64,000 nucleotides of DNA. It comes from Blepharisma japonicum. Its lineage: Eukaryota; Ciliophora; Heterotrichea; Heterotrichida; Blepharismidae. Position 1 is the first letter of the stretch; each line of letters starts with the position of its first letter. The notes beneath the pieces are model-generated. The model had not been told where the DNA came from. It saw only the letters and a program-made list of their open reading frames with translations, and searched no databases. The stretch is from NCBI GenBank assembly GCA_949751835.1, contig CATKHK010000049.1:1-64000 (forward strand), given 5' to 3'. The position numbers were made by a program, and so were the translations under genes. Below, piece by piece: positions 1 through 42,300 of this stretch.

Positions 1-480
1 TGAAGCATTTATATTTATTATAAACAAAAATCAGTTCATCTCAAAAATATATGCTTTAAATTAATTTAAAGATAGATTTTAAAGGTCTTCTCAATTATAA
101 TTATGAAAAACTAATTAAAAGCTATATTTACTGAATAATTTGTAATTGGAACTAATTAAGTCGTTTTGAAAGTGATTTTTATAATTGAAGGCTTTTAGAT
201 TATCATTTTGAAATATATATAGAATTTGTAGAGCCTAAAAAACATATAATTAATTCTTAGTTTAAGAATTAGAGTGCTTTTAAGTCTAACTAGATTCTTC
301 ATGCGAATCTCTTCTTTGTGTAGCTCTAGTGAAACGAAATAAAATTCATTTCTATAGGCATGCTGCTATCAAATTAATATAGCAGATCGCTTGTCTCTAG
401 TGCTAAAGCAAAGTTGAATTCAATGTTAAATAGTGTACCCATTATTTTCTGCCAATAACTAAGAAAAAAACTGCTTTAAT
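1..480. other. AT-rich stretch, no gene seen
   Basis: This AT-rich DNA has no open frame with recognisable protein similarity, no tRNA-like cloverleaf and no clear tandem repeat. It precedes a cluster of gene relicts and may itself be decayed coding sequence. Confidence 0.5.
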
Positions 481-489
481 ATCACTTTT

Positions 490-665
490 TATGAAAATTA
501 ATTTATCAAGGATATGTCACTGGAGTTTCTGAACCTTAGCATCAATGGTCTTTAATAGAAAGCTATAAAAGAGCAATAGATACACATGATGGACTCTGTG
601 TGATTCCTTTAATGGATCACATGAATCATTCTTACAAGCATCAAAGATACTATTTCTAATCTAAT
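490..665 (+). pseudogene. SET-domain protein relict (fragment)
   Basis: A stretch of about 110 bases reads LCVIPLMDHMNHSYKH in one frame, which resembles the conserved core of SETD3/LSMT-type SET-domain lysine methyltransferases (pattern PLxDMxNH). A closely similar stretch lies in inverted orientation at about 15630-15790. No start codon, no complete SET domain and no long open frame accompany it, and the upstream half is in a different frame. I read it as a dispersed gene fragment; the family assignment rests on one short motif. Confidence 0.45.
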
Positions 666-689
666 AAAAAAGAATAAAAAAGCTACAAA

Positions 690-1260
690 AATCCCGAAAA
701 CTTAAAAGAAGAAATAAACTCAAAAATGGAAAATGAGATGGAACAAATTAATTCTCAAATAATCAATGTAAATCAAGATCTCAAAAAAATTCAATTTTAT
801 AAACTCTCAAAATCTACTTAAAGAATTAAGAGACAAGAGATTAGAAATATTAAATAAACCAAATTATCCAGAATTAGAAAAAGAATTTAGGGAAATTTGA
901 TCAATCTACGAAAGCCATACCTGCATTAACAGTCCACCTATTCAGCAAGCATATCAAGATTATAACCTTGCTTACCGTCAAAAAACATCACTTTATAGTA
1001 TTCAAGAAGTTAATGACAAAACTAGTTTGTTTATTTATGATACAGAAAGAGAAAGTAGAGAAATTAGAGTATTAGAGACTCCTGAAACATTAGACCATGA
1101 CACATGTATAGCTCAACTGCCGCAAGCTGATAGCGGCTGCACAAATATAATATTTAATCAAAATATTTTGATTTCTGCATTCTATAATAAAAATCTTTTG
1201 CGATGTTCAATTGTTAGCAACACTTTCGTAACAATTCCTTAGAGACCTCCAATTTATCCT
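690..1260 (+). pseudogene. Relict of the coiled-coil/Kelch protein family (internal deletion)
   Basis: From about 690 the sequence encodes broken coiled-coil text, then from about 1020 a readable stretch (TSLFIYDTERESREIRVLETPE) that parallels the intact minus-strand gene at 1816-3570. After the residues IAQLP the text jumps directly to a later part of the Kelch region (ADSGCTNIIFNQNILIS), so roughly 70 residues found in the intact paralogue are missing. The frame ends at 1240-1242 and the Cys/His N-terminus is absent. It lies opposite to the intact copy. A decayed paralogue is the simplest reading. Confidence 0.6.
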
Positions 1261-1337
1261 TAGAAAGAGAAAATAGCAGATTCAACATTTGAGTAACCAA
1301 TCTGCCGAAAAGTCACTGTTTTCGCAAATCTGATTTG

Positions 1338-1810
1338 AAAAATGAAAAGTTAGGCCTGAGAAACAACAATAATGATACTTTCAATAAAAAAATAAAAGAT
1401 TAAAAACAAGAAATAGATGCTTTAGCTAAAAAAAAGCAGATTGCTATTAATGAAAATAATTATAAAAGAAAAATTGAAAAATTGCAACAAAAAAAAGTAT
1501 TCTAATACCAAACATTTGGACACTTGAAAATAAACTTATCTAAAGTATCTTTAGTAATAAAACATTTATTGCAAGAGATAATTCATAATCTTGAAGTGCC
1601 AGTGATTAGAACAAAATGCAGATTTACGGTCAAAAATAGGTGATATACAGCATTATCATAAAGTTATTCCAATTTATTCCCTGTCCTTAATTAAAATGAT
1701 GTGTGATGAACTAGATAATTATTCAGTAACAATTGCGAAATCTATTATAAGGATTAACTATCCTTAACACTTATTTCAAAACCATTAAAAATATTTTTAA
1801 CTAACCATTT
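1338..1810 (+). repeat. Segmental duplication, copy A (noncoding/degenerate part)
   Basis: This block recurs almost base for base at about 7417-7880. Both contain the same broken coiled-coil text (LRNNNN, KIEKLQQKK) followed by the same downstream sequence, and both end at the 3' end of a Kelch-family gene. The duplication therefore covers the flank and the Kelch gene together. The block has stops in every frame, so I do not call a gene. Confidence 0.75.
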
Positions 1811-1815
1811 TAGAA

Positions 1816-3570
1816 TTACTCTAATTTAACCACTCTCTTTTCATTCAAATCAAACTTGAAGTATTCTATATTTGAGTAAAAACTTCTTACCACTACTATC
1901 CCAATGTATATTCCTCCTTTGTTATATGAACAATACACTTGAAAAGGAAATTCGATTATTGAGCCTGCTATTCTTTTCCAGTTCGTTTCACTTCCAATTT
2001 CACTTTCATAGATTGATCCATTATTGGATTCAATCAAATACAGTCTCTCTGCATTTATCAGGATCTTTCTTTTACCTTCTGCAAACTCATAAGGAATTGT
2101 TGAGAAAGAGTCAACATCAATTGAGTACAGCAAAAGATTTTTATTATTCCGTCCAGAAATTAGAATACTCCCATTAAATATTATACTATTGCAAAGCGAA
2201 TCAGCTTTTGGCAATGGAGTTAATGGAATTCATCGTTTTTGATCCAAATCAAATCTACTAGATAGAGTTAAAAATTTAATCCCATGATATCCTCCAAAGC
2301 AATAGATGCTGTTGTTGAAATAGATACATGATGAGCGATAGCAAGGAGTTCCAGATGGCAGCACTTCGACTCTACCATTCACATCAAATAGCAATGTGAT
2401 TCCAGAAGGTGGATAATTACCAAAACAGAATAGCTTGCCATTTGGAAGTTGAGTTATGCAAGTGCCTCAGTCTAGTGGTTCTGGAGTCTCCAAGATTTTG
2501 ATTTCTTTGGTTTCAGTTTCAGTGTTATAAATAGTTAATTCAGTTCTGTTGTTATTCTTTTTAAGATTATAAAGAGATGTGTTTTGTTGGTAAGCATTAA
2601 GATAATCTTGGTAAGCTTGCGCTAGCAGTGGATCATAAACGCTAGAATTGCTCTGGTACGCTGAGCAAGTTGCTCTGAAATCCATCTCTAATTCTCGATT
2701 GTTTGGTCTACTCAAAAACTCAGCTGTTTTATGTCTTAAGGTAATATTCATAAGATTTAATGGGTTTTTTATTTTTTCGAATTTACTGTTGATATCACTA
2801 GTAATGGAGCTTATTTTAGAATTAAGCAGTATTGTCTCGCTCTCATTCTCTGCTTTTAATCTTATTAAATTTTGAAACTCTTTTAAACTCTGACTGTTCT
2901 CATTTGCTTTTAAAGGAATCGAATCCTTAATGTTTGCTACCTTAATCCTAGCCGAATTTACAGTTTTATTATTTACTTCAATACTGTTTTCTTTATTTGA
3001 GCATATAATATTAAGAAATGCTTGAAATCTCTTATTAACGAAAGATGTAATTAAACTTTCTAAGTCTCTACTGTATATATGAAACAACTTTGAACCATTA
3101 TATCAATGCTTTTCGGCTGAGATTATCGATTTTACTTTGTTTACAGCTTCTTCAGGCTGTAAAGTCAATAATTCTAAAATTGAGTCTTGGTTTGACTTTA
3201 AAGATTTTTTAGCTTTGCAAATTTCTAAAACCAAATTTCCTACATTAGCTGATGAAGTATCTAAATTTCTAGTGTATTGTCTTAAATCTTTTTCTAAATT
3301 AGCTAGACGCTGACTAAAGGAATCTATAATTAACTTCTTTAGCTTCCTATACTTTGAAGCTTCTTTCATAAGAAATCTAAGAACAGCTTGTTTTGTCTCT
3401 TCATTAGGCTCTGCAAAAATAGAGTCAAATGAATGATCCCTGCCAGTAATTTTATTTTTAATATGCCTTCCGATATGCAGCTCACAGAAGAAAGATTCAG
3501 GAGAGGTGCATTTGCATACACACTCAACTTCATTTTTGCAGTCTGGCTCGAAGCACTTCTTTTGATCCAT
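1816..3570 (-). CDS. Cys/His (B-box-like) zinc module, coiled coil, Kelch-like repeat protein
   Basis: With TGA read as Trp this is one uninterrupted frame of 584 residues from ATG to TAG/TAA. Residues 6-36 hold C6, C11, C19, C21, C29, H32 and H36, a B-box-like zinc cluster with exactly the spacing seen in the two TPR genes at 11207 and 13765. Residues about 45-330 are helical with coiled-coil character. From about residue 365 the chain has Kelch-like beta-blade repeats (LPNGKLFCFGNYP, IYFNNSIYCFGGY, IIFNGSILISG). Three in-frame TGA codons sit within an otherwise conserved paralogous alignment, which supports Trp decoding. The likely role is a scaffold or adaptor, perhaps ubiquitin-linked; that is inference, since no catalytic domain is visible. 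It is the only full-length Kelch member here; truncated relatives lie at 0.7-1.26 kb and 7.9-9.0 kb. Confidence 0.8.
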
Positions 3571-4530
3571 CTAGAATTATTATTAAAGTAGCTAATTTAT
3601 ATGAAAAAATGTACATTAATCTCGTTTTTTAGATAATCCTAAGCACAGAAATATTCAATAAATAAATTTGCATTCTGATGATAAAGAATTTATGAATAAC
3701 TGATTAGGGTTTGAATTTGCATTAGCATAAAATGAGTACTCCAAGGATTAATAATGGCAAGCATCCTTTGGAAAATTTTAGGCTATCAAAATTCTTATAT
3801 TGGCTACCTGATGATTTGCTTTATAGATTTTCATAGTAAAAAATCTGCATCAAATTTTTCTTTCTTTAACTAGACATAGCCATATATCTGCTCAAATAAT
3901 TTATATACTGCCATCCTCATATTTGCACTTTATCATAAATTATGCTCATTTAGTGTCCGCTAGAAAGTATAGGCTTGATAGTAGTCACCTTTTTAGATGA
4001 TTAGATGTTTGTAAATTTCATTCAGCAAATAAATAACCATTCTGAGTTAATCCCAATTATAGAAGTTTAGGCCTTTACAACTCTCCTTTGAGCACAGTAA
4101 GTTTATATGAGTTCGTCAGACGCCTAGAAGTACCAGTCTCTACGCCAACTGGAAATTAATTCTCCAAGATTATTACTCTTACCCTGTGCATCAGATCTCT
4201 ATAATCTTGATTCTCCCAACATGATGACGACAATTTTGGCAAGGTGCTCCAAGAAGATTAGGTGAATAGGCTTACAATTGGGGCTGCTTTAAATTGGATA
4301 TTGCTTTCATCTGCAAACACTATATATTAAGTCTTGATGATATAAAATAGTTTGAGGGTTATAGAACAGTTATAAGCGGATTTCTATGATTATTAGATAG
4401 AGGTTCTTTCAGATTTTTCATCTCATTAGGTGATGAATGGTTTTAAAATCGATTTGTCAATTGTTTCTTAATTTTCATTTCATCCTCTTCTATATTCCAC
4501 AATACAAAACTGTGCGCTGAGACTGAGTTT
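3571..4530. other. Degenerate region, possible F-box-like relict
   Basis: No intact gene is visible. From an ATG at 3732 a short plus-strand frame reads MSTPRINNGKHPLENF and then WLPDDLLYRFS before a TAG; the LPDDLLYRF text is reminiscent of an F-box start, but there is too little to be sure. The remainder carries stops in all frames under either code. It is probably decayed coding DNA like its neighbours. Confidence 0.3.
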
Positions 4531-5145
4531 TATCCTTTAAATCAAAAAATTAAAGTACTTGGAAAAGAAAATAACCAAATAGCTCAAGAAAATTCTAATC
4601 TGAAGGATAATTTAAAAGAATTAAAAACTGATGTTGAGCAGGCTAAAGAGAAAAATATTAGTCTCTTAACTGAAAATCAATCTATAAAAAATTAAAGATC
4701 AAACAAGTGAATTTGAAGCAAAAGCAATAGAAAATGAGAGATAAAGAAAAGAATTTAATGATTAAACAATAAACTAGCAGAAGAATCACCTGAAAGTCAA
4801 AACCTTGCAATACAATTTAAAAACATTCAAAATTATATAAAGCATGCATTACTAACTCAGAAGATTTGACTAAAAATATGAATCATTAAAATCTCAGTTC
4901 AAAAGAAAACATTTTTTAAAAGAGATTATTAAAGATTTAATAATTGAATTATTAGAAGAACATGGAAAATCAAAAACAGTAAAAAATAAAATAGAAATGA
5001 TAAAATAAAAATTATTGTATTTTGAAGAGATTGAATATGGTCACGCTATAAATGGCAGTATAGATAATTTAACCTTGGCTGTTCATAAAATTTAAAAAGA
5101 ATCATAAGAAAGTATAATGAGAAAGATGATATAAAAATAAAGAAT
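4531..5145 (+). pseudogene. Degenerate coiled-coil gene relict
   Basis: The plus strand at about 4540-4695 reads KVLGKENNQIAQENSNLKDN and onward as heptad-like Asn/Glu/Lys-rich coiled coil, then breaks at stops and shifted frames, with further Lys/Glu-rich pieces to about 5140. No start codon or family-defining motif is present. It lies immediately upstream of the Sec63 J-domain remnant but I cannot tell whether it belonged to that gene or to an unrelated coiled-coil protein. Confidence 0.4.
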
Positions 5146-5149
5146 TTGT

Positions 5150-5395
5150 CTACTCTTTTTAAAAGTATTTGATCCTTATGAAATCGAAGTGGGCGCTTTA
5201 GATAAACAAATCCATTCAGTTTTAAAAAAACTCAGTAAAAAATACCACCCCGATAAAGACCCAGAAGGCATTTGGGAAGCAGGAAAATACATAACCATCG
5301 CAAAATCTTATGGAACCTTGAAAATGAGTTGGTTAAAGCAAATTATGAAAATATGAAAATCCTAATGAGCCTTATTTATTAATAGTAGGAAGGCA
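5150..5395 (+). pseudogene. SEC63: Sec63 relict: J domain
   Basis: The frame starting near 5163 reads KVFDPYEIEVGALDKQIHSV and continues through KKYHPDKDPEG, which carries the HPD motif of J domains; the FDPYEI entry and the trailing text (AKSYGTL, then ELVKANYE in another frame, then GNPNEP) match the Sec63-type J domain of the ER translocon better than a generic DnaJ. Frame changes between these pieces show it is broken. It stops directly before a DNA primase fragment that begins at 5397, and Sec63 text resumes only at about 6430. Sec63 normally recruits BiP to the Sec61 channel; this copy cannot. Confidence 0.65.
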
Positions 5396-5396
5396 A

Positions 5397-6230
5397 ATGG
5401 ACCCACAAACTTTAGAAAACTACGATAGAAATTATTTCCCTTGCAGCATACTTTGCAGATGGCTCAATCCAAGAGTTGAACTTGAAAAACAAGATCCACA
5501 TTATGACAAAACTTACTTTGAAAGTAGAGAATTTTCTTTCACTTTGCTGGGAGATATCAATTGCCGCCATCAAAGTTTCAGCTCTGCAAATGAATTTAAA
5601 AATTAGTTGATTCACGACAAGCCAAAAAATTTGATATTGAAGTTGCATGAACAGTCCTCCCAAACAAAAAGATTCAAAATAAAATAATCTATGAGATTCT
5701 CAAAAGAGAATTTGTCATTGATATTGATATGACTGATTATGGCAAAGTTAGAGCATGCTGCTCTGGCGCTGTAGTTTGCCAGCCTTGCTAGAGATTTTTA
5801 GTAGTCGCTTGCAAATCAATGGATATTGCCCTAAAAGAATCATTTGGATACGCTGTTAATTTATGGGTATACTCAGGAAGAAGAGGCATCCATTGCTGAG
5901 TTTCTCCCCCCCACAAGGCTTTTAAATGATTTTTGAAGAAAAGCATTAATAGAATTTCTTAATTCAGGTCCAAAACCTTCTCCAGATCTGCAGAGAAGTT
6001 TTGAGATCTCATTTGAAAAAATTATTGTCAGAGAATTAAATATATTTGCAAATCAAGAAAGACTAAATGAATCTGTTGAAATTATTAACAATTTAGCAAG
6101 TCTTTGTGAAAGAATTTGTGTCTTGTCCAGCAAAAATGACAATACGGCTGCTGATGTGTTTGCTGAAAACAGAAAACCATGTATCAATTTTGTTAGTCTT
6201 TTTTGTAATTGCGGTTAAAAATTTTGCCGG
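5397..6230 (+). pseudogene. PRIM1: DNA primase small subunit (PriS/PRIM1) relict
   Basis: The first frame begins with ATG and reads LENYDRNYFPCSILCRWLNP and then SREFSFTLLGD, the N-terminal signature of eukaryotic primase small subunits. After a one-base frame change near 5600 the text continues to FVIDIDMTDYGKVRACCSGA and [20 protein letters not shown], which include the catalytic DxD (DIDMTDY) and the SGRRGxHxW motif. A TAG occupies a position where the family has Trp (CxxCW). The C-terminal third is not recognisable. Functional PriS makes RNA primers for replication; this copy is decayed. It lies inside a broken Sec63 sequence, so it probably arrived as a fragment. Confidence 0.75.
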
Positions 6231-6430
6231 GGGTTTTTATTTTTTGAATTACGACGTCGAAAAAGGTGAATATGAATGGAGTTTTGCAAGATAACATGCT
6301 GATGCACATAAAGCTTATTAAATGAAAACATGAATATCAAGCAATGCTTATTGATGATTATTATCAGTGCTGAATTCCATAAACTGCGGTACCAAAATCT
6401 GATTCACTAGAGCTAAATAAATTAAGCAAA
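6231..6430 (+). other. Unassigned sequence between primase and Sec63 remnants
   Basis: A short open stretch up to 6294 reads FYFLNYDVEKGEYEWSFAR but I could not place it with confidence in either PriS or Sec63. Several in-frame TGA codons follow. The boundary between the primase and Sec63 pieces must lie in or near this interval. Confidence 0.3.
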
Positions 6431-7375
6431 AAATTGTTGAGTTTATTCCAAAAAATCAAAACTTCAACCCAAAGATGCTAAAAGATTCGCTGTTACTGGT
6501 TGCACATATGAATAGAAAAAATCTTTCAGATAAAGCCCAGATTGAATATGATTTTAATGAAAGAAGTCAATATTATAGAAACCATGCTTGATACGGGGCT
6601 ATATTATTAATTCAGGCCCAAGAACAAAAAATGAGCATCCACACATTACTTTATCAATAGAAGTTGCTCAATTAATTACCGCAAGTGCATTGGCTTCGTG
6701 AAAACAATCTTTTAATGTTCCCGCATATAAATAATAGTAATTTAAAATCAAATAAATGGAAAATTTCTGAAATTGACATCAATATTTATCAAAATCTGAA
6801 AAATCACTATCAGAGCAGCAATTTCTTACATAAAGAAGTCCTCAATTATTTCCCAGAGCTTAAAGTAGAATATCCAGTATATGTTGATGAAGAAGTGGAA
6901 ATTGCATATTGAGATGTTATTACTATAAAAGTTGTAATCACAAGAGAGCAGCTTCAAGAAAACCAATTTTTAAGGCACATCCATGCCCAAGAATTCTCTT
7001 ATCAAAAAATGAAAAGTGGAGGCTTCTTATTGCAGAGCCAAAATAAATAAAGTCCTCTAAAATCGTTTTCATCAATGAAAGAGCTATTGAAGACAAAGAC
7101 TTCAAGATACAGCAGGGCCTGCAAGGCTTTAATATTGGTCCAGACGAGCAGTCATGAAAACTTCACGTTAAATCTGGCTATTATTATGGTCTCGACGCCT
7201 GCGAAAAGCTTAACTTTACAGTGAAAACGCCTGGAGATACCAAAAAAGAAGAGTATAAAGTCCATCCTGATTACGTAAATATTAAAAATAACGCCATTTC
7301 AAAGTGTAATGACTGGTTTGCAGCTTGAAAAAGAACTTTCAATAAAAAATTATAAGTCTTTTCTCAGATATAGTT
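6430..7375 (+). pseudogene. SEC63: Sec63 relict: C-terminal Sec63 domain
   Basis: The text LLLVAHMNRKNLSDKAQIEY resembles the start of the helical Sec63 domain, HPHITLSIEVAQLITASALA its middle, and VEYPVYVDEEVEIAYWDVIT followed by TIKVVITREQLQENQFLRHI the beta-sandwich that ends Sec63. From about 7065 the frame NERAIEDKDFKIQQG to SGYYYGLDACEKLNF continues the same fold (compare the YLGLD motif before the final strands). Stops and frame changes separate the blocks. The last 300 bases recur at 9000-9245. This is the second half of the gene whose J domain lies at 5150-5395. Confidence 0.7.
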
Positions 7376-7416
7376 CATTTGGATGCATTCTTAAATGAAA
7401 AATAATGGCATTTTAA

Positions 7417-7880
7417 AAATGAAAAGTTAGGTCTGAGAAACAACAATAATAATACTTTCGATAAAGAAATAAAAGATTAAAAACAAGAAATAGCTGCTTT
7501 AGCTAAAAAATCCAGATTATTATTAATGAAAATCATTATAAAAAATTGCAACAAAAAAAAAAGTATTCTAATACCAAACATTGGAACGCTTGAAAATAAA
7601 CTTATCTAAAGTACCTTTAGTAATAAAACATTTATTGCAAGAGAAAATTCATAACCTTGAAGCCAGTTATCAGAACAAAATGCAGATTTACGGTCAGAAA
7701 TAGGTAATATACAACATTGACAGAAAGTTATTCCATTTTATTCCCTGTCCTTAATTAAAAGGATGAGTGTATGAACTAGATAATTATGCAGTAACAATTG
7801 CGAAATCTATTATAAGGATTAACTATCCTTAACATTTATATTTCAAAAGCATTAAAATTACTTTTAACTAACCATTTTAT
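7417..7880 (+). repeat. Segmental duplication, copy B (noncoding/degenerate part)
   Basis: This block is nearly identical to about 1338-1810, differing by scattered substitutions and short indels. The match carries on into the adjacent Kelch-family relict, so the duplicated segment is at least 1.5 kb. It begins a few tens of bases after the Sec63 C-terminal fragment ends, which marks a rearrangement breakpoint. Confidence 0.75.
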
Positions 7881-7882
7881 AA

Positions 7883-8995
7883 TTACTCTAATTTAATTAC
7901 TCTCTTTTCATTCAAATCAAACTTGTAGTAATTCATATATTCTCTTTCATCTATTATCCCCATGTATATTCCTCCTTTGTTATATGAACAATACACTTGA
8001 CAACAAATATTACCGATTTTTGAGCTAGCTATTCTTTTCCAGTTCGTGTCACTTCCAATTTCGCTTTCATAGATGTATCCATTATAGCATTCAATCAAAT
8101 ACAATCTCTCAGCATTTATCAAGATCTTTCTTTTACCTCCTGCAAACTGATAAGGAATTGTTGAGAAAGAGTCAATATCAATTGAGTATAGACAAAGATT
8201 TTTATTATTCTCTCCAGAAATCAGAATATTCCCATTAAATATTATACTATTGCAATATCAATCAGCTTTTGGCAATGGAGTTAACTGAATTCATCGATTT
8301 TGATCCAAATCAAATCTACTAGATAGAGTTAATAAATTCAAATCATATCCTCCAAAGCAATAGACACTGTTGTTGAAATATATACATGATGACTTTGTGC
8401 AAGGAGTTCCAGATGGCAGCAATTCGACTCTACCATTCACATCTAATAGAAATGTAATTCCAGAATACGGATAACTACCAAAACAAAATAGCTTGCCATT
8501 TGGAAGTTGAGCCATGCAAGTATCTAAGTATAATTCTGGAGTCTGCAAGATTTTGACTTCTTTGGTTTCAGTTTCAGTGTTATAAATAGTTAATTCAGTT
8601 CTGTCCTTAATCTTTCATAGATTATAAAGAGATGTTTTTTGTTGGTAAGCATCAAGATAATTTTGGTAAGCTTGCGCTAGCAGTGGATCATAAAGGCTAG
8701 AATTGTTCTGGTACGCTGAGCAAGTTGCTCTGAAATCCATCTCTAATTCTCGATTGTTTGGTCCACTCAAGAACTCAGCTGTTTTATGTCTTAAGGAATT
8801 AATATTCATAAGATTTAATTGGCTTTCTATTTTTTTGAGTTTACTGTTGATATCACTAGAATGGAGTTTATTTTAGAATTAAGCAACATTGCCTCACTTT
8901 CATTCTCTGTTTTGAATCTTATTAAATTTTGATGCACTTTTAAACTCTCACTGTTCTCATTTGCTTTTAAAGAAATCGAATCCTTAATGCTTGCA
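7883..8995 (-). pseudogene. Truncated copy of the coiled-coil/Kelch gene
   Basis: From about 8809 down to 7883 the frame is open under TGA=Trp and encodes the whole Kelch-like region of the intact paralogue at 1816-3570 with only modest divergence (IYFNNSVYCFGGYD, IIFNGNILISGENN). Near 8865 one base is missing relative to the paralogue (tcactagaatgg against tcactagtaatgg), which shifts the frame of the upstream coiled coil. At about 8995 similarity stops abruptly and Sec63-derived sequence begins on the other strand, so the Cys/His module is absent. It is a 5'-truncated duplicate; expression of the Kelch half cannot be excluded. Confidence 0.75.
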
Positions 8996-9285
8996 CTTAA
9001 TAAAAGAGCTATTGAAGACAAAGACTTCAAGGTACAACAAGGCTTTAATATTGGCCCAGGCGAGCAGTCATGAAAAATTCACATTAAATCTGGCCCACAT
9101 TATGGTCTCGACGCCTACGAAAAGCTTAACTTTACAGTTAAAAAGCCTGAAGATACCAAAAGAGAAGAGTATAAAGTCCATCCTGATTACGAAAATATTG
9201 AAAAGTACGCTGTTTCAAAGCGTGATGACTGGTTTGCAGCCTGGAGAAGAAAGTTCAGAAGAAGAAAATATCCCTGAGCTCGAAG
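8996..9285 (+). pseudogene. SEC63: Second Sec63 C-terminal fragment
   Basis: The frame RAIEDKDFKVQQGFNIGPGE and SGPHYGLDAYEKLNFTVKKP, then DWFAAWRR, parallels 7065-7375 and keeps better codons: the reading frame is open here through an in-frame TGA (EQSWKIH) that reads as Trp. It is followed by an acidic stretch (EENIPELEEI) that could be the Sec63 acidic tail in a shifted frame. It abuts the truncated Kelch copy on one side and an M18 peptidase fragment on the other. Confidence 0.6.
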
Positions 9286-9289
9286 AAAT

Positions 9290-9673
9290 CCCACAAAGTA
9301 AATCCGAAGGTTTCCATGTTTCAACTGATATGACTTATGCAATGCATCAAAATTATGCTGAAAAGCACTAAGTAAGCTACAGGCCAACTGTACATGGAGA
9401 GGTTGCTATAAAAAGAAATTCAATTAAAGGTATTCGACCGATATGCTAGGAGCAAGTTTATTGAAAGTCCATGCGGAGAGCAATGGAATTAAAAAGCAGG
9501 AGTTTAATGTGAGAAATGAGTCTCCTTGCGGAACGACTATTGGGTCAATTATGGCTTCATTTACTGGGATTAGAGCAGTTGATATTTATGCACCGATGTT
9601 TGCGATGCATTCTATTAGAGAAATGATGGGGACTGATAATATAGTCTATTATGCAGACTTAATGATATCATAA
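9290..9673 (+). pseudogene. DNPEP: Aspartyl aminopeptidase (M18) C-terminal fragment
   Basis: The text FHVSTDMTYAMHQNYAEKH matches the M18 motif SADMAHAVHPNYxEKH, keeping the second His. After a TAA and a frame change the sequence continues with MLGASLLKVHAESNG, VRNESPCGTTIGSIMAS, GIRAVDIYAPMFAMHSIREM, which are the conserved C-terminal motifs (DMPCGTTIGP and AMHSIRE) of this dodecameric zinc aminopeptidase. The N-terminal two thirds are missing and the last strand is cut at YYADLMIS. It is a broken host gene fragment. Confidence 0.8.
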
Positions 9674-9679
9674 TCAAGA

Positions 9680-9940
9680 TTCCTACAATTTTAGCGAAGG
9701 AACTGCTTAGCCATGGCTCCAAAGGATTTGGTGCAAATCCGCTCCCTTTGAATGGGATTTTTGCTTCAATTTTAGCTCCATATGGATGATTTTTTGCTAT
9801 AACTTCGTGCAACTTGGTAGCAGCAACTTCAGCATCCACCCCAGGAGGTAGTCTAACTGACAGTCTTAATTTTTTGCTTGGTTTTAGCAATTTTCCAGCA
9901 TTAGCAAGATCTGGGAGTCTTTGTGCTCCGGAATATACAC
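9680..9940 (-). pseudogene. M20-family peptidase fragment
   Basis: The minus strand reads GAQRLPDLANAGKLL, then KLRLSVRLPPGVDAEVAATK and NHPYGAKIEAKIPFKGSGFA with PNPLEPWLSSSF. This matches the dimerization-domain border of M20 metallopeptidases (LRPSTTLRLSLRLPPxxD ... PYGAKV ... PPWLS), the CNDP2/Cys-Gly dipeptidase type. Both ends are truncated. It lies tail to tail against the M18 fragment with almost no spacer, so the join is a rearrangement point. Confidence 0.65.
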
Positions 9941-11068
9941 AAATGAATATCCTAAGATTTTAGAGCACCTCAATGGCCTTCACCAGAATACTTCTAAGAA
10001 AAATGAGTTTATGCACTTCGCCGAAGATTTGCGGACTTTACTATTCAGATTCTTCCAAAAAATCCTTATTGACCTGCTTAACACATCACCTTACCACAAA
10101 AAACATTATTTCCAAGCCCAACAACCTTCTTCCCAAAACAGCCCAACATCAAGAGATTGGCCTCTTCAGTTTATTAGCAAAACATGCAAATTCTGCTAAA
10201 CTCAGCTTAAATATCCCGACAACCCTAATCAGTGAGTTACCTGAGCTATATATGGTACAAACCAAAACGGGAAAAAATTATTTTGGCATAGGAATGAACG
10301 CTTGAGGAATTTTTAAGCTTGACTGCAGACAAAAATGACTCGGATTTGCATTTTTTGTTACAAAATCTCTGGAAAGAAGTTATGGCCACTTTTTCAGAAA
10401 ATCTGCTGAAAGATTGTGAAATTCTTCTGAAGACCATGAAATTTTGCAGAATTTCATACAGAGCAAAGACGAATCCAGCCACAATTACAAGGATTTTGTG
10501 GAGGCGAGAATCAAAAATAAGTATTTTACTGTTATAAACCTCAAAAAAAAGTGTCAAGAAGACTCAAGAAAAGTGTTACCATTGCTGCAGGGCTCTCTTT
10601 TAGAAGAAATAAGCTTATGCATAATATAAAAACGCAGTAATGATGAATCCAGTGTCTCAATCTGCTGACTATCTTTTAGAACAAACCCGAAAATGCCTTT
10701 AAGTAGAAAATTTCTGACAATGACTGAAAAAACCAACAGTGGCCGAGTCCAATTTTGTGAAGTCTTGTCTACTGCTGTATCTAAAAATAAAAGACTATGA
10801 TTGTTATGACTCAACTGCATCTACTGATATTTCAAGCCAAGAAAACCACAATAAAGAATTCATAGTTTTCACTAAAGATGTAGATAGCTGCTACGCCGTT
10901 GAAAGCTATTCAAAAATTACTGAAATCAAGCTTATGGTATACCAAATCGTAGAGTTTTTAAATTTAGAAGTATTTAAGCACCATGACTGAAGGAGGACAA
11001 AATTTGGATAAAAGCCTTTCTTTGTACTCTAGGAATTATATAATAAAGTTAATTAATAGCTAAGCTAA
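9941..11068. other. Unidentified degenerate coding relicts
   Basis: On the plus strand several overlapping open pieces occur (about 9973-10305, 10319-10630, 10739-10990) with codon texture like real protein, for example DSCYAVESYSKITEIKLMVY near the end. None gives a recognisable family motif and they lie in different frames separated by stops. I read this as another decayed gene or genes of unknown identity. The last 80 bases are plain AT-rich spacer. Confidence 0.35.
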
Positions 11069-11206
11069 ATTTTCTTTAGAATTAGTTAATCATCACTTTT
11101 TAAATTAAATTAAACTTGCAATAACTATTGCAGGATTTTGTGCAATCTGAAGTCCAATATAATTGACTTAGGAGTCTAAATTTAATGGAAATATAATTGT
11201 AAGAAT
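11069..11206 (+). repeat. Duplicated 5' flank of the TPR genes, copy 1
   Basis: These 138 bases upstream of the first TPR gene are very similar to 13627-13764 upstream of the second, up to and including the ATG context (aatATGAGCACC). The shared flank shows that the promoter region was carried along in the tandem duplication, and may hold the common promoter. Confidence 0.75.
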
Positions 11207-12982
11207 ATGAGCACCATCAAATGCTATTGGTCAAAATGCGACCGAGAAGTTGAGTTTTCATGCAACTGCGCTTCCATTAATAAGTATTTTTGCAGAGAAC
11301 ACTGTGGGAGCCATTGCATATCTAGTAAAGGACCTCATGATCCCATTTCATTATTATATGAGCCTGTTGAAAGTACAAAAAAAGCGATCCTTAGCTTTCT
11401 TGCAGAAGAAAAATCAAAAATTGAGCAAATAAAAGCAAATCTCATCGCTTCTTTTTTTCAAACTATTTGTAGATATGAAAATATACTTAAACAAGTTTTA
11501 AAAGAAATCGACTCTGATTCTAGAAAAATTGGCAGTTATATAGAAAAAATATTGATAACAGAAAATCTATCTAGATTGGAGATAGATCCAGCTTTAAATT
11601 TGTTAGCTTTGCAATCAAATGCTGTTGATAAAGCTAGAGTTATTTTTATGGCAAAAGCAAATAAGAGCATTGAGTTATTTTGTGATATAGGAAGACAAAT
11701 TGATAGAATTATCAAGAGCTTCTATGAAAAAAAGTCCAAAAAGTATAAAGAAGCAATCAGAATTGATCCAAATGATGCATACTTTTGCATAGGAAATATC
11801 TTAAAAAATGAAAAGAGATATGAAGAAGCAGTAAAACATTACAATAATGCAATTAGAATCAATCCAAATGATGCACTTTATTACACAAATAAAGGATATG
11901 CTCTTAGAGAGTTAGGCAGGAGAGAAGAAGCTATGAAATGCTATAAAGAAGCTCTCAGAATTGATCCAAATTATGCTGATGCATACAATGAAATAGGAAT
12001 TATCTTTTATGATGAAAAGAAATATGAAGAAGCAGTAAAACATTACAACGATGCAATTAGAATCAATCCAACTAATGGACTTTATTATAGAAATAAAGGA
12101 AATTCTCTGGAGAAGTTAGGCAAAAAAGAAGAAGCTATAGAATGCTATAAAGAAGCTATCAGAATAGATCCAAATAATGAAATTGCATACATAGGCATAG
12201 GAAATATCTTGAAAAATGAAAAGAGATATGAAGAAGCAATAAAACATTACAAGAATGCAATTAGAATCAATCCAAACTGTGCAAATTATTATAATAAAGG
12301 ATTAGCTCTATGTCAGTTAGGCAGAAGAGAAAAAGCTATGAAATGCTTTAACAGAGCTATCAAAATTGATCCAAATCATGCACCTGCATACTTGGGCATA
12401 GGGAATATCTTCTATAATGAAAAGAGATATGAAGAAGCAATAAAGCATTACAAAAATGCAATTAGAATCAATCCATGAGAACCACTTTATTATAGAAATA
12501 AAGGATATGCTCTTGTAGAGTTAGGCAGAAGAGAAGAAGCTATGGAATGCTATAAAGAAGCAATCCGAATTGATCCAAATAATGCACCTATTTACAATAA
12601 CATGGGACTTATCTTGAAAAATAAAAAGAGATATGAAGAAGCCATAAAGCATTACGAAAATGCAATTAGAATCAATCCAAGAGAACCACTTTATTATAGA
12701 AATAAAGGATATGCTCTTAGAGAGTTAGGCAGGAGAGAAAAAGCTATAGAATGCTATAAAGAAGCTATCAGAATTGATCCAAATTATGCTGATGCATACA
12801 ATGAAATAGGAATTATCTTTTATGATGAAAAGAGATATGAAGAAGCAATAAAACATTACAACGATGCAATTAGAATCAATCCAACTAATGGACTTTATTA
12901 TAGAAATAAAGGAAATTCTCTGGAGAAGTTAGGCAGAAGAGAAGAAGCTATGGAATGCTTTAGCATAGCTAAAAATTTATAA
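11207..12982 (+). CDS. Cys/His module plus TPR-array protein, copy 1
   Basis: One frame of 591 residues, reading a TGA at 12477-12479 as Trp (neighbouring repeats have Arg, AGA, there). Residues 1-36 carry C6, C11, C19, C21, C29, H32 and H36 with the same spacing as the Kelch gene at 1816. A helical linker runs to about 180, followed by about 12 tetratricopeptide repeats of 34 residues alternating in two types (EAIRIDPNNA... and AIRINPN...), giving a 68-residue, 204-bp repeat at DNA level. TPR solenoids bind peptides, so an adaptor role is likely; the partner is unknown. Compared with copy 2 it lacks about 28 residues just before the first TPR (SFYEKKSK runs directly into KYKEAIRID). It is a tandem paralogue of 13765-15237. 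Confidence 0.88.
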
Positions 12983-13626
12983 AATGCATAATCTTATTAA
13001 TAATAAAATATATTTTCCTAGATCTCGATTTATTATATATATATATATTTATTAAAACTAGCAGTTAAAGAACAAACTTTAGTTTTAAAATAAAAGCTCA
13101 AAAGAAATGAATCTTTTATAAAAATAGAGCAAAGAGTAAGCTAACTTCATAAATGAACTCAAATAACTTTTAATCCTTAATGATACCCTTTACTCTGCAG
13201 GTTAAGCATCTATTGCGATATAGGAATAGCATTTCAAGGATATTAGATAGGAGAAATTCTTTAAATCAATGATGAAATGAAAAATTGCTGAAATAGGCTT
13301 AAATGGTTAAGATAATTCTTAATAATTGATTTTCTTTTTTTTATGCGCATCTTTAGCTCTAATGTCTAGATGATGTTTTCATTTAAATTCCAAAGTTAAA
13401 CCAAAGAGTTCGAACAATCACATTCTTGCCAAATTTATAGCTCAAGCTGAGATTTTCATTTTAAACAAAGATAGCCAAGTTTCGTTTTCAAAACCTATTC
13501 AAAAGTGTCATTATTTGGCATTCAATTAAAATAGGTTTATTAATAGTTAACATTCTTATCTCATGGCAAATAATCAAAAATTTTTCTCCCTCATAAATAT
13601 ATTTTTCTTTCTTAATATTTTATCAA
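12983..13626. other. Spacer between tandem TPR genes
   Basis: The first part, with text such as ataataaaatatatttt, matches the 3' flank of the second TPR gene (15238-15480), so the downstream flank is also part of the duplicated unit. A short TA dinucleotide run lies near 13037-13050. No gene is visible. Confidence 0.55.
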
Positions 13627-13764
13627 ATTTTCTTTAGAGTTAGTTAATCATCACTTTTTAAGCTAAATTAAACTTTCAAAAACTATTACAGAATTTCGTG
13701 CAATCTGATGTCCTAAATAATTGATTTAGGAGCCTAGATTTAATGGAAATATAATTGTAGGAAT
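13627..13764 (+). repeat. Duplicated 5' flank of the TPR genes, copy 2
   Basis: This is the counterpart of 11069-11206 and shares most bases, including ttagttaatcatcacttttt and the sequence leading to the start codon. It probably contains the promoter of the second gene. Confidence 0.75.
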
Positions 13765-15237
13765 ATGAGCACCATTAAATGCGATCGGTCAAAATGCAAC
13801 AGAGGAGTTGAGTACTCATGCAATTGCACTTCCCCTGATACTTATTTTTGCAAAAAACACCGTAGGAATCATTGCACATCTAGTAAAGGACCTCATAATC
13901 CCATCTCATTATTTTATAAGCCTGCTGAAGACACAAAAGAAGCCATCCTTAGCTTTCTTGAAGAAGAAAAATCAAAAACTGAGCAAATAAAAACAAATAT
14001 AATCGCTTCTTTTTCTCAAACTATTTGTAGATATGAAAATATGCTTGAACAAGTTTTAAAAGAAATCGACTCTGATTCTACAAAAATTAGCAGTTATATA
14101 GAAAAAATATGGATAACAGAAAATCTATCTCGATTGGAGATAGATCCAGCTTTAAATTTGTTAGCTTTGCAATCAAATGCTGTTGATAAAGCTAGAGTTA
14201 TTTTTACTTCAAGAGGAAATAAGAACATTGAATTATTTTGTGATATAGGAAGACAAATTGATATAATTATCAAGAGCTTCTATGAAGAAAAGTCAAAATT
14301 TATTTCAGATGAAATGCATTTTGAACTGAAAAACGATCTTGAAGAGAGCAATAACTTTGAGAATAGAGGAAAAAAGTTACAGCCAGCACTAGAAAAGTAT
14401 AAAGAAGCTATAAGAATTGATCCAAATAATGCACCTGCATACTTGGGCATAGGGAATATCTTCTATAATGAAAAGAGATATGAAGAAGCTATAAAACATT
14501 ACAACGATGCAATTAGAATCAATCCAAATTATGCAGGTTATTATTTTAATAAAGGAAATGCTCTTAGAGACTTAGGCAGAAGCGAAGAAGCTATGGAATG
14601 CTATAAAGAAGCTATCAGAATTGATCCAAATCGTGCTGATGCTCACATAAACATAGGAATTATCTTCTATAGTGATAAGAGATATGAAGAAGCAGTAAAA
14701 CATTACAACGATGCAATTAGAATCAATCCAAACTCTGTACTTTATTATAAAAATAAAGGAATGGCTCTATTTAAGTTAGGCAGAAGAGAAGAAGCTCTGG
14801 AATGCTATAAAGAAGCTATCAAAATTGATTCAAATCATGCTGATGCATACAATGGCATAGGAATTATCTTTTATGATGAAAAGAGATATGGAGAAGCAGT
14901 AAAATATTACAACGATGCAATTAGAATTAATCCAAATAACGTATTTTATTATATAAATAAAGGAAATTCTCTGGAGGAGTTAGGCAGAAAAGAAGAAGCT
15001 ATGAAATGCTATAAAGAAGCTCTCAGAATTGATCCAAATAATGCTAATGCATACAATGGCATAGGAAATATCTTCTATAATGAAAAGAGGTATGAAGAAG
15101 CAGTAAAAAATTACAACGATGCAATTAGAAGCAATCCAAATGATGCACTTTATTATAGAAATAAAGGAAATGCTCTTAGAGAGTTAGGAAGAAGAGAAGA
15201 AGCTATGGAATACTTTAACAGAGCTAAAAAATTATAA
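13765..15237 (+). CDS. Cys/His module plus TPR-array protein, copy 2
   Basis: This open frame of 490 residues ends in TAA. Residues 6-36 again hold C6, C11, C19, C21, C29, H32 and H36. Residues about 40-205 form a helical region nearly identical to copy 1 (for example SRLEIDPALNLLALQSNAVD in both), extended here by a charged segment (FISDEMHFELKNDLEESNNF). About eight TPRs of 34 residues follow, in alternating pairs. The N-terminal regions of the two copies match closely while repeat numbers differ (about 12 against 8), as expected from unequal exchange within the 204-bp units. It is likely a protein-interaction adaptor; nothing in the sequence fixes its partner. Confidence 0.88.
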   Translation: MSTIKCDRSKCNRGVEYSCNCTSPDTYFCKKHRRNHCTSSKGPHNPISLFYKPAEDTKEAILSFLEEEKSKTEQIKTNIIASFSQTICRYENMLEQVLKEIDSDSTKISSYIEKIWITENLSRLEIDPALNLLALQSNAVDKARVIFTSRGNKNIELFCDIGRQIDIIIKSFYEEKSKFISDEMHFELKNDLEESNNFENRGKKLQPALEKYKEAIRIDPNNAPAYLGIGNIFYNEKRYEEAIKHYNDAIRINPNYAGYYFNKGNALRDLGRSEEAMECYKEAIRIDPNRADAHINIGIIFYSDKRYEEAVKHYNDAIRINPNSVLYYKNKGMALFKLGRREEALECYKEAIKIDSNHADAYNGIGIIFYDEKRYGEAVKYYNDAIRINPNNVFYYINKGNSLEELGRKEEAMKCYKEALRIDPNNANAYNGIGNIFYNEKRYEEAVKNYNDAIRSNPNDALYYRNKGNALRELGRREEAMEYFNRAKKL

Positions 15238-40947: not shown

Positions 40948-42300
40948 ATGGGATCAGGCAAATCTAAAGGCAAAAAAATCAATTTTACAAAATGTAAAAT
41001 TGATTTTTTAGACCAAGAAGAAAAAAGAAACTCTATAAAAGCTCCAAAAACCTATGATGAATTAAAAGCCCAAATTATGTCCCATTTCCCAGATGGCGAT
41101 ATTATCATTTCTTACAATCATCGTGAAGAAGGTATAATTCCAATCACTACTCAACAAGAATATATAGAAGCTATCGCTTTAAATCCTACCAAATTAGAAA
41201 TCGAAATCTCAATAGCCTTTGCTAAGCAGCCTTCATTCCAGCTTAGCCCGAGGAAAAAACCTGACAGTCTAAACAACTCTCGCCTTGATGAAGTAAACTC
41301 TCGGTCTCCTAAGCCTCCTTCCTTTATTAAAAGCCCTGCCAAGCCTTCTTCTCCATCTTTAAAGCATGATTCCTTTATTAAAAGCCCTTCCAAGCCTTAT
41401 TCTCCATCTTTAAAGCACGATTCTTTCTTTGATCTCCCAAAGATCTACGAAATCAATCATAATACTTCTTCCAATATCATAAAAGTCGAAGAACTAGAAG
41501 AAGTTGAGCCACCTGATTTATTCAGAGTAGACACAATGGAGGCAAATGATTTAAATATTTTTGACCAATATGTAGTTAGGATATGAGAAGGATTTTTAAA
41601 AGTATTGAACGCAAGAACACTTGCAGTTAAAAGACTAAACCATCCTTTATATGACATGAATAGCCGAGCTTCTGTGCTGTCAACAGGAGACATAATTATT
41701 ACTGGGGGCTCAAAAAGACCAAAATCAGTTATTCAAGTTTCCCTTTCTTCAGAAAAATTTATAAAATTAAGAGAAATGAATTTTCCAAGAATGAATCATG
41801 CATCTGTGTGCTTAAATGACGAAATTTTTGTAATTGGAGGGAAGCAAAGGGTCCCAATGAAAGAATGCGAAGTTTTTTCTGAAGGAAATTGGGAAAAAAT
41901 TGAAGACTTAAATATTGGAAGACATGGGCACAGTGCTGTTGTCTCTGGGAGTAAAATTGTGGTTTGTGGAGGTTTAGGTGAAAATTCTATAGAATTATAT
42001 AGTGGAAACCAATGGATTTTAATTTCTTTAAAAATCTCAATACCATTGTCTAAGCCTGGACTATTTCCTGTCAATGAAGGAAATATTTATATAATTGGAG
42101 GTTCAAGTGGCGAAATTAAAAACAAAATGTGGATGATGGATATCAGCACAGAAATGATTGCAGAGCTCGATAAAATTGAATTCGCTGACACTTTTACATG
42201 TGAAGGACTGAAAAAAGATGATAGATTTTTGATTTTAGGAGTCAGCAACGGGTATGAGTACAATTTCCGAACAAAATCATGGAAAATAATTCCTATCTAA
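40948..42300 (+). CDS. PB1-like plus Kelch-repeat protein with N-myristoylation signal
   Basis: The frame of 450 residues includes TGA=Trp at VVRIWEGF. It starts MGSGKSKGKK, a good N-myristoylation sequence (Gly2, Ser/basic following). Residues about 33-92 resemble a PB1 domain (TYDELKAQIMSHFPDGDIII and SYNHREEGIIPITTQQEYIE). A linker holds a tandem 18-residue Ser/Pro/Lys repeat (FIKSPAKPSSPSLKHDS twice or more). Residues about 235-450 carry Kelch blades (DIIITGGSKRP, EIFVIGGKQ, KIVVCGGLGENSIELY, NIYIIGGSSGE). It is probably a membrane-tethered scaffold. I have seen no catalytic domain. Confidence 0.72.

What the first reader, a model, noticed from the sequence alone, without database searches (positions are those of the whole stretch)
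3571..11068. A mosaic graveyard of conserved single-copy genes
Within 7.5 kb lie broken pieces of Sec63, DNA primase small subunit, M18 and M20 peptidases, a Kelch-family copy and unidentified coiled coils, in mixed order and orientation and joined with little spacer. No transposase or integrase text is visible. Such fragments of essential genes may come from capture of genomic or cDNA pieces during double-strand repair, or from imprecise genome rearrangement at macronuclear development.
Basis: partly seen in the sequence, partly recalled or inferred. Interest (0 to 1): 0.7.

Follow-up and report, generated by a model that had tools for sequence, protein, structure and literature searches.

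The report
Copied chromosome-end block of gene scraps
This stretch of a Blepharisma-like ciliate genome is one of about twenty decayed copies of a patchwork of ordinary gene pieces spread among chromosome ends; two of the pieces look like reverse-transcribed messenger RNA that landed inside other dead genes.

Summary
Window 3571-10995 holds broken pieces of Sec63, primase small subunit, M18 and M20 peptidases, a Kelch gene, a coiled-coil gene and an unnamed gene X. Intact parents of Sec63, primase, M18 and M20 lie elsewhere in the 45.2 Mb genome; X has a 72% relative. It is not a private graveyard: the same Sec63|primase join is found at 19 places, while each parent matches only its own half. 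Copies lie near contig ends; five telomere-capped ends carry block sequence, and 19 of 21 placed copies face the same way. Nine copies differ by about 9-10% on average, carry frame breaks, and vary almost evenly over codon positions: pseudogenes. Divergence of the left and right halves is uncorrelated, and the window joins two block lineages around a Kelch insert not seen in 13 other copies, so copies recombine. Two inserts (primase in Sec63, X in M20) are flanked by 11- and 12-bp target duplications, begin 25 and 11 nt before their ATG, and share 4 and 3 nt with the target at their 3' joins, like internally primed retrocopies. No poly(A) was seen and the intron test was uninformative. New variant of a known kind.

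The parts
1816..3570 (-). Flanking intact Kelch gene, 584 aa with TGA read as Trp; source-type sequence of the copy at 7410-8994
3571..4490 (.). Remnant shared with many other contig-end places; 74% to C34:334782-335591
   Evidence: 59 matching pieces for 3571-5152
4491..5152 (+). Coiled-coil gene remnant; related sequence at C34:337478-338124 and C34:327437-328083 (81-82%)
5160..5373 (+). Sec63 5' part (C83:41385-41609); about 360 nt of Sec63 present in fuller copies is missing here
5363..5373 (+). Left copy of the 11-bp target duplication around the primase insert
5372..6115 (+). Primase small subunit piece, from 25 nt before the parental ATG, with an internal deletion (C91:128313-129054, then about 129334-129363)
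6116..6124 (+). Right copy of the 11-bp target duplication, decayed in the window
6122..7341 (+). Sec63 3' part (C83:41607-42862); its end segment 7074-7341 is closest to C125 (95%)
7410..8994 (-). Kelch gene copy, truncated at its 5' side and including 3' flank; not seen at this point in 13 other copies
8999..9309 (+). Second, overlapping Sec63 segment (C83:42590-42914), closest to C222 (91%)
9310..9708 (+). M18 aminopeptidase 3' part (C123:105787-105386), ends just before the stop codon
9706..9931 (-). M20 peptidase piece, antisense (C42:126694-126919)
9920..9931 (+). Left copy of the 12-bp target duplication of the X insert; the right copy is lost in the window with the end of X
9932..10995 (+). 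Gene X piece, starts 11 nt before the ATG of the C46 relative; truncated here at about 10985-10995, longer in C97, C135, C164, C170
11186..12982 (+). Flanking open TPR gene, 598 aa, of the same chromosome-end repeat neighbourhood

Best explanation
The region is one decayed copy of a composite pseudogene block that belongs to the chromosome-end repeats of a Blepharisma-like ciliate. Inferred history: a Sec63 copy beside a coiled-coil remnant received a copy of the primase message; M18 and M20 pieces were joined to its tail through short shared sequences; the M20 piece received a copy of gene X. The primase and X inserts look like retrocopies made by target-primed reverse transcription that started inside the message: the nicked target paired over 3-4 nt with the mRNA, copying ran to about the mRNA 5' end, and an 11- or 12-bp target duplication resulted. 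The composite then spread among chromosome ends by recombination while copies decayed without selection and lost pieces at microhomologies. In the window two block lineages were joined around a Kelch copy. Shown: pieces, parents, joins, duplications, copy number, placement, near-neutral decay, mixing of lineages. Inferred: retrotransposition, order of events, route of spread.
For: Join Sec63|primase at 19 places, each parent matching half. Joins and 11/12-bp duplications, each string once in its parent locus. 5' ends 25 and 11 nt before the ATG; Sec63 homology starts 3-18 nt before its ATG. 3' joins share TGAT and CTT with the target. 32 reverse transcriptase matches in the genome. Frame breaks in 13 of 13 primase and 9 of 9 M18 copies, even spread over codon positions. 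Telomere repeats at C90, C99, C108, C121, and C17. Orientation 19 of 21. Uncorrelated divergence of block halves, two lineages in the window.
Against: No poly(A) tail; intron test uninformative. The right-hand primase duplication differs from the parent at 2 of 11 positions in most copies. X's relative is only 72% alike. M18, M20 and Kelch pieces do not show the retrocopy anatomy. Only 3 of 15 block-side ends read, plus C90, carry telomere repeats; of 13 telomere-bearing ends in the listed part only C17 showed block sequence. Nearness to contig ends is partly expected because repeats break assemblies. Sec63 copies vary slightly unevenly over codon positions (p 0.01). C90 and C52 face the other way.
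Confidence: 0.6

Rival explanations
1. All pieces, primase and X included, are genomic DNA fragments captured at double-strand breaks by end joining or template switching; fill-in of staggered ends made the duplications. The composite then spread as above.
For: Microhomology of 7 nt (GAAGAAG) and 3 nt (CTT) at Sec63|M18 and M18|M20; deletions and a C219 insertion with short shared sequence; the Kelch piece carries 3' flank, so it is DNA-level.
Against: Two of two inserts with target duplications begin just before an ATG and run in sense direction, with shared bases only at the 3' join.
Confidence: 0.3
2. The block is, or was carried by, a gene-capturing DNA transposon of the Pack-MULE or Helitron kind.
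For: Fragments of several genes, multiplied as a unit.
Against: Copies end at different points, placement and orientation follow contig ends, and no shared terminal repeat pair turned up in window 1-14000 at the lengths asked. Copies were not read to their outer ends throughout.
Confidence: 0.05
3. Imprecise rejoining during macronuclear development, or assembly chimeras.
For: Blepharisma macronuclear DNA is heavily fragmented with many alternative telomere sites (PMC9942806, passages).
Against: The same join at 19 places, 84-96% identical to the window over the 101-nt probe.
Confidence: 0.05

Closest known systems
Subtelomeric duplicons and pseudogene patchworks (recalled, e.g. human and yeast chromosome ends)
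   Same: Blocks of gene pieces shared by many chromosome ends, diverged and recombining, mostly one orientation towards the end.
   Different: Here in a ciliate assembly, and the block contains nested inserts with target duplications.
Processed pseudogenes / retrocopies made by non-LTR retrotransposons (recalled)
   Same: Sense copies with target duplications of about 10 bp and 5' ends near the message start (primase, X).
   Different: No poly(A); the 3' ends lie inside the coding sequence with 3-4 shared nt, which suggests internal priming; intron loss could not be tested.
LINE/RTE-X elements in the B. stoltei macronuclear genome (PMC9942856, passages)
   Same: Reverse transcriptase genes are present in this genome too.
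   Different: The block itself holds no recognised reverse transcriptase piece in what was read; the elements are a possible tool, not shown to be the cause.
Pack-MULE and Helitron gene-fragment capture (recalled)
   Same: Composite of fragments from several genes, multiplied.
   Different: No common termini found; placement follows contig ends.

Membership tests
Subtelomeric duplicon | Same block at several chromosome ends | tested here: met
   19 joins; telomere repeats at block-bearing ends of C17, C90, C99, C108, C121
Subtelomeric duplicon | All or most copies next to telomeres | tested here: inconclusive
   Most block-side contig ends lack telomere repeats (3 of 15), which may be assembly breaks
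Subtelomeric duplicon | Uniform orientation towards the end | tested here: met
   19 of 21 copies with known contig length of 30 kb or more; set chosen after seeing the data
Pseudogene | Frame breaks and near-neutral change | tested here: met
   Sec63 part slightly uneven
Retrocopy (primase, X inserts) | Target-site duplication | tested here: met
   11 and 12 bp; right side of primase differs at 2 of 11 positions
Retrocopy (primase, X inserts) | Loss of parental introns | tested here: inconclusive
   No intron-like gap in the parents' captured parts
Retrocopy (primase, X inserts) | Poly(A) tail at the 3' end | tested here: not met
   3' joins read directly; the 3' ends lie within the coding sequence
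Pack-MULE / Helitron | Fixed element termini | tested here: inconclusive
   None seen in window 1-14000 and copies end differently, but not all copies were read to their outer ends

The most novel reading that the evidence does not exclude
Chromosome ends of this ciliate were patched by reverse transcription of host messages: broken or newly cut ends served as primers that paired over a few bases with mRNAs, leaving nested gene copies that then became a spreading end repeat.
Probability: 0.1. Interest if true: 0.8.

Novelty: new variant of a known kind. Interest (0 to 1): 0.5.

Why it matters
It gives base-exact junctions for how host-gene scraps enter and multiply at ciliate chromosome ends, and predictions that can be scored genome-wide to tell reverse transcription from break repair: 5' ends at transcription starts, short priming matches at 3' ends, target duplications. 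If the assembly is macronuclear, as its telomeres suggest, it also shows that sizeable inherited junk is kept in a gene-dense somatic genome.

Tried and rejected
Assembly chimera and developmental accident: rejected by 19 shared joins. Functional chimeric gene: rejected; 13 of 13 primase copies and 9 of 9 M18 copies aligned have frame-breaking indels, and 12 of 13 and 9 of 9 have TAA/TAG in the parental frame; for Sec63 11 of 15 rows have such stops, and the indel counts (1-24) are inflated by alignment noise. Intron test: uninformative. An apparent target duplication at a C219 insertion: on reading the letters it is a microhomology insertion, dropped. Empty-site test at the coiled-coil|Sec63 edge: the eight flanks fetched differ from each other and give no clean empty site. 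Parent of the piece beyond M20: the search found 6 places, all block copies. A similar scan for insertions with duplications against a C199 reference gave no further clear case.

Literature. PMC9942806 and PMC9942856 were seen as passages only; the string subtelomer does not occur in the held main text of either. Searches were seen as listings with starts of abstracts; none listed a report of such a block. Supplements were not read, and subscription journals are mostly not held.

Rows left out of the orientation count: small contigs C199, C205, C219, C222 (no unique side known), and C37, C118, C143, C166 (length not known to me). Places with only the coiled-coil stretch (for example C58, C141, C145) were not counted either. 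Copy numbers are lower bounds, as the tool states.

Full report
What the window is. It is the first 64 kb of contig C49 of a 45.2 Mb, 224-contig assembly. TGA reads as tryptophan in the open genes, and CCCTAACA telomere repeats are present (168 matches to three units, 0 for the reversed control). Both are published for Blepharisma stoltei (PMC9942806, passages), so this is a Blepharisma-like heterotrich and probably a macronuclear assembly; the species was not determined.

Pieces and parents. DNA comparison places the named pieces on intact genes elsewhere: Sec63 on C83 (650 aa, DnaJ plus Brl domains), primase on C91 (380 aa), M18 on C123 (456 aa), M20 on C42 (488 aa). A further piece, X, resembles an open 581-aa frame in C46 without a Pfam match; at 72% identity this may be a relative and not the direct parent. 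The genome has three intact-looking primase genes, two Sec63-like genes with open Brl frames besides two double-Brl proteins, and two M18 genes; in DNA comparison with the window the parents named are the closest.

Order. In block orientation: coiled-coil remnant, Sec63 5' part, primase, Sec63 3' part, M18 3' part, M20 antisense, X. In five fuller copies (C97, C108, C135, C164, C170) M20 resumes after X, followed by a piece with no parent found. The window copy lacks about 360 nt of Sec63 and the end of X, and has a Kelch copy between two overlapping Sec63 segments; in 13 copies on 12 contigs the Sec63 homology runs straight through that point.

Joins. Sec63 runs to C83:41609, primase follows from C91:128313, and Sec63 resumes at 41599 in most copies, so 11 bp of Sec63 stand on both sides of the primase insert; the right-hand side differs from the parent at 2 of 11 positions in most copies. 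M20 runs to C42:126919, X follows, and M20 resumes at 126908, so 12 bp stand on both sides of X. Both sides are exact in C108 (where part of X is inverted); in C164 the left side is exact and the right has two changes. Each string occurs once in its parent locus. Primase starts 25 nt and X 11 nt before the ATG of the parent or relative; Sec63 homology begins 3 to 18 nt before its ATG, depending on the copy. At the 3' joins gene and target share TGAT (primase) and CTT (X); at the 5' joins I see no clear shared bases. At Sec63|M18 both parents read GAAGAAG where the copies read GAAGG; M18|M20 shares CTT.

Reading of the joins. In target-primed reverse transcription (established for LINE elements; recalled) the nicked target pairs with the template at the copy's 3' end, copying runs to the RNA 5' end, and a short target duplication results. 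The primase and X inserts show these three signs, with priming inside the message in place of the poly(A) tail. Reverse transcriptase genes or pieces are present: 32 RVT_1 matches, at least 12 of them within 10 kb of a contig end (no chance level was computed, and repeats break contigs). LINE/RTE-X elements are described in B. stoltei (PMC9942856, passages). Lack of poly(A) and of a usable intron test keep the mechanism an inference. The Kelch insert, with 3' flank, looks DNA-level; M18 and M20 could be either.

A chromosome-end repeat. A 101-nt probe over the Sec63|primase join finds 19 copies, one of them partial, and the two parents with only their own halves. The stretch before it (3571-5152) gives 59 matching pieces. 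Telomere repeats cap the block side of C99, C108 and C121 and C90, and in C17 a coiled-coil piece stops 5 nt short of the first exact telomere match. Against: of 15 block-side ends of contigs of 30 kb or more read, only those 3 carried the repeat; the window's own start, C12 and C135 have none there; and of 13 telomere-bearing ends in the listed part only C17 showed block sequence. Orientation: for contigs of 30 kb or more with known length, the block's coiled-coil/Sec63 side faces the nearer end in C1, C15, C49, C77, C97, C99, C108, C125, C135 (starts) and C9, C11, C12, C31, C95, C105, C121, C138, C164, C170 (ends); C90 and C52 face the other way: 19 of 21, two-sided p 2e-4, on a set put together after seeing the data. 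Repeats break assemblies, which inflates nearness to contig ends, but would not by itself give one orientation.

Decay and exchange. Differences among copies are even over codon positions for primase (156/160/150, p 0.85, 13 copies) and M18 (66/66/58, p 0.71, 9 copies) and slightly uneven for Sec63 (330/264/329, p 0.01, 15 rows). Intact primase paralogs differ mostly at third positions (for example 83/58/195). Differences fixed between parent and copies are rich in third positions (primase 11/9/33, Sec63 31/22/50, M18 12/9/31), as expected if many arose in the constrained parent. In 9 copies with both halves the mean pairwise difference is 8.9% (Sec63 part) and 10.0% (M20-X part), without correlation (rho -0.18, p 0.30). 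The first Sec63 segment of the window is 95% identical to C125, the second 91% to C222, so the window joins two lineages.

Verdict. The finding is real. It is best described as one copy of an old, multiplied and decaying composite block of chromosome-end repeats, with two inserts that look like internally primed retrocopies. That is a new variant of known kinds (subtelomeric duplicon; retrocopy), of moderate interest.

Noticed in passing
G000 C96:48982-50062 (L057): A separate broken M18 copy, 76-80% to C123, that includes sequence beside the M18 gene, so it looks like a DNA-level duplication apart from the block.
   Followed up: no
G000 C91, C6, C61 (L009-L011): Three intact-looking DNA primase small-subunit genes in one genome.
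   Followed up: no
G000 C69:899-1605: Reverse transcriptase pieces about 1 kb from a telomere-capped contig start.
   Followed up: no
L071 (C108:4300-6357): Part of X stands in inverted orientation beside the direct part, as after a fold-back or inversion.
   Followed up: partly
window 11186-12982 and 13744-15237: Two neighbouring TPR genes whose N-terminal cysteine-rich part resembles that of the Kelch gene at 1816-3570; apparently large families of the chromosome-end neighbourhood.
   Followed up: no
window 814-1241: Another diverged Kelch-like fragment in opposite orientation at the contig start.
   Followed up: no
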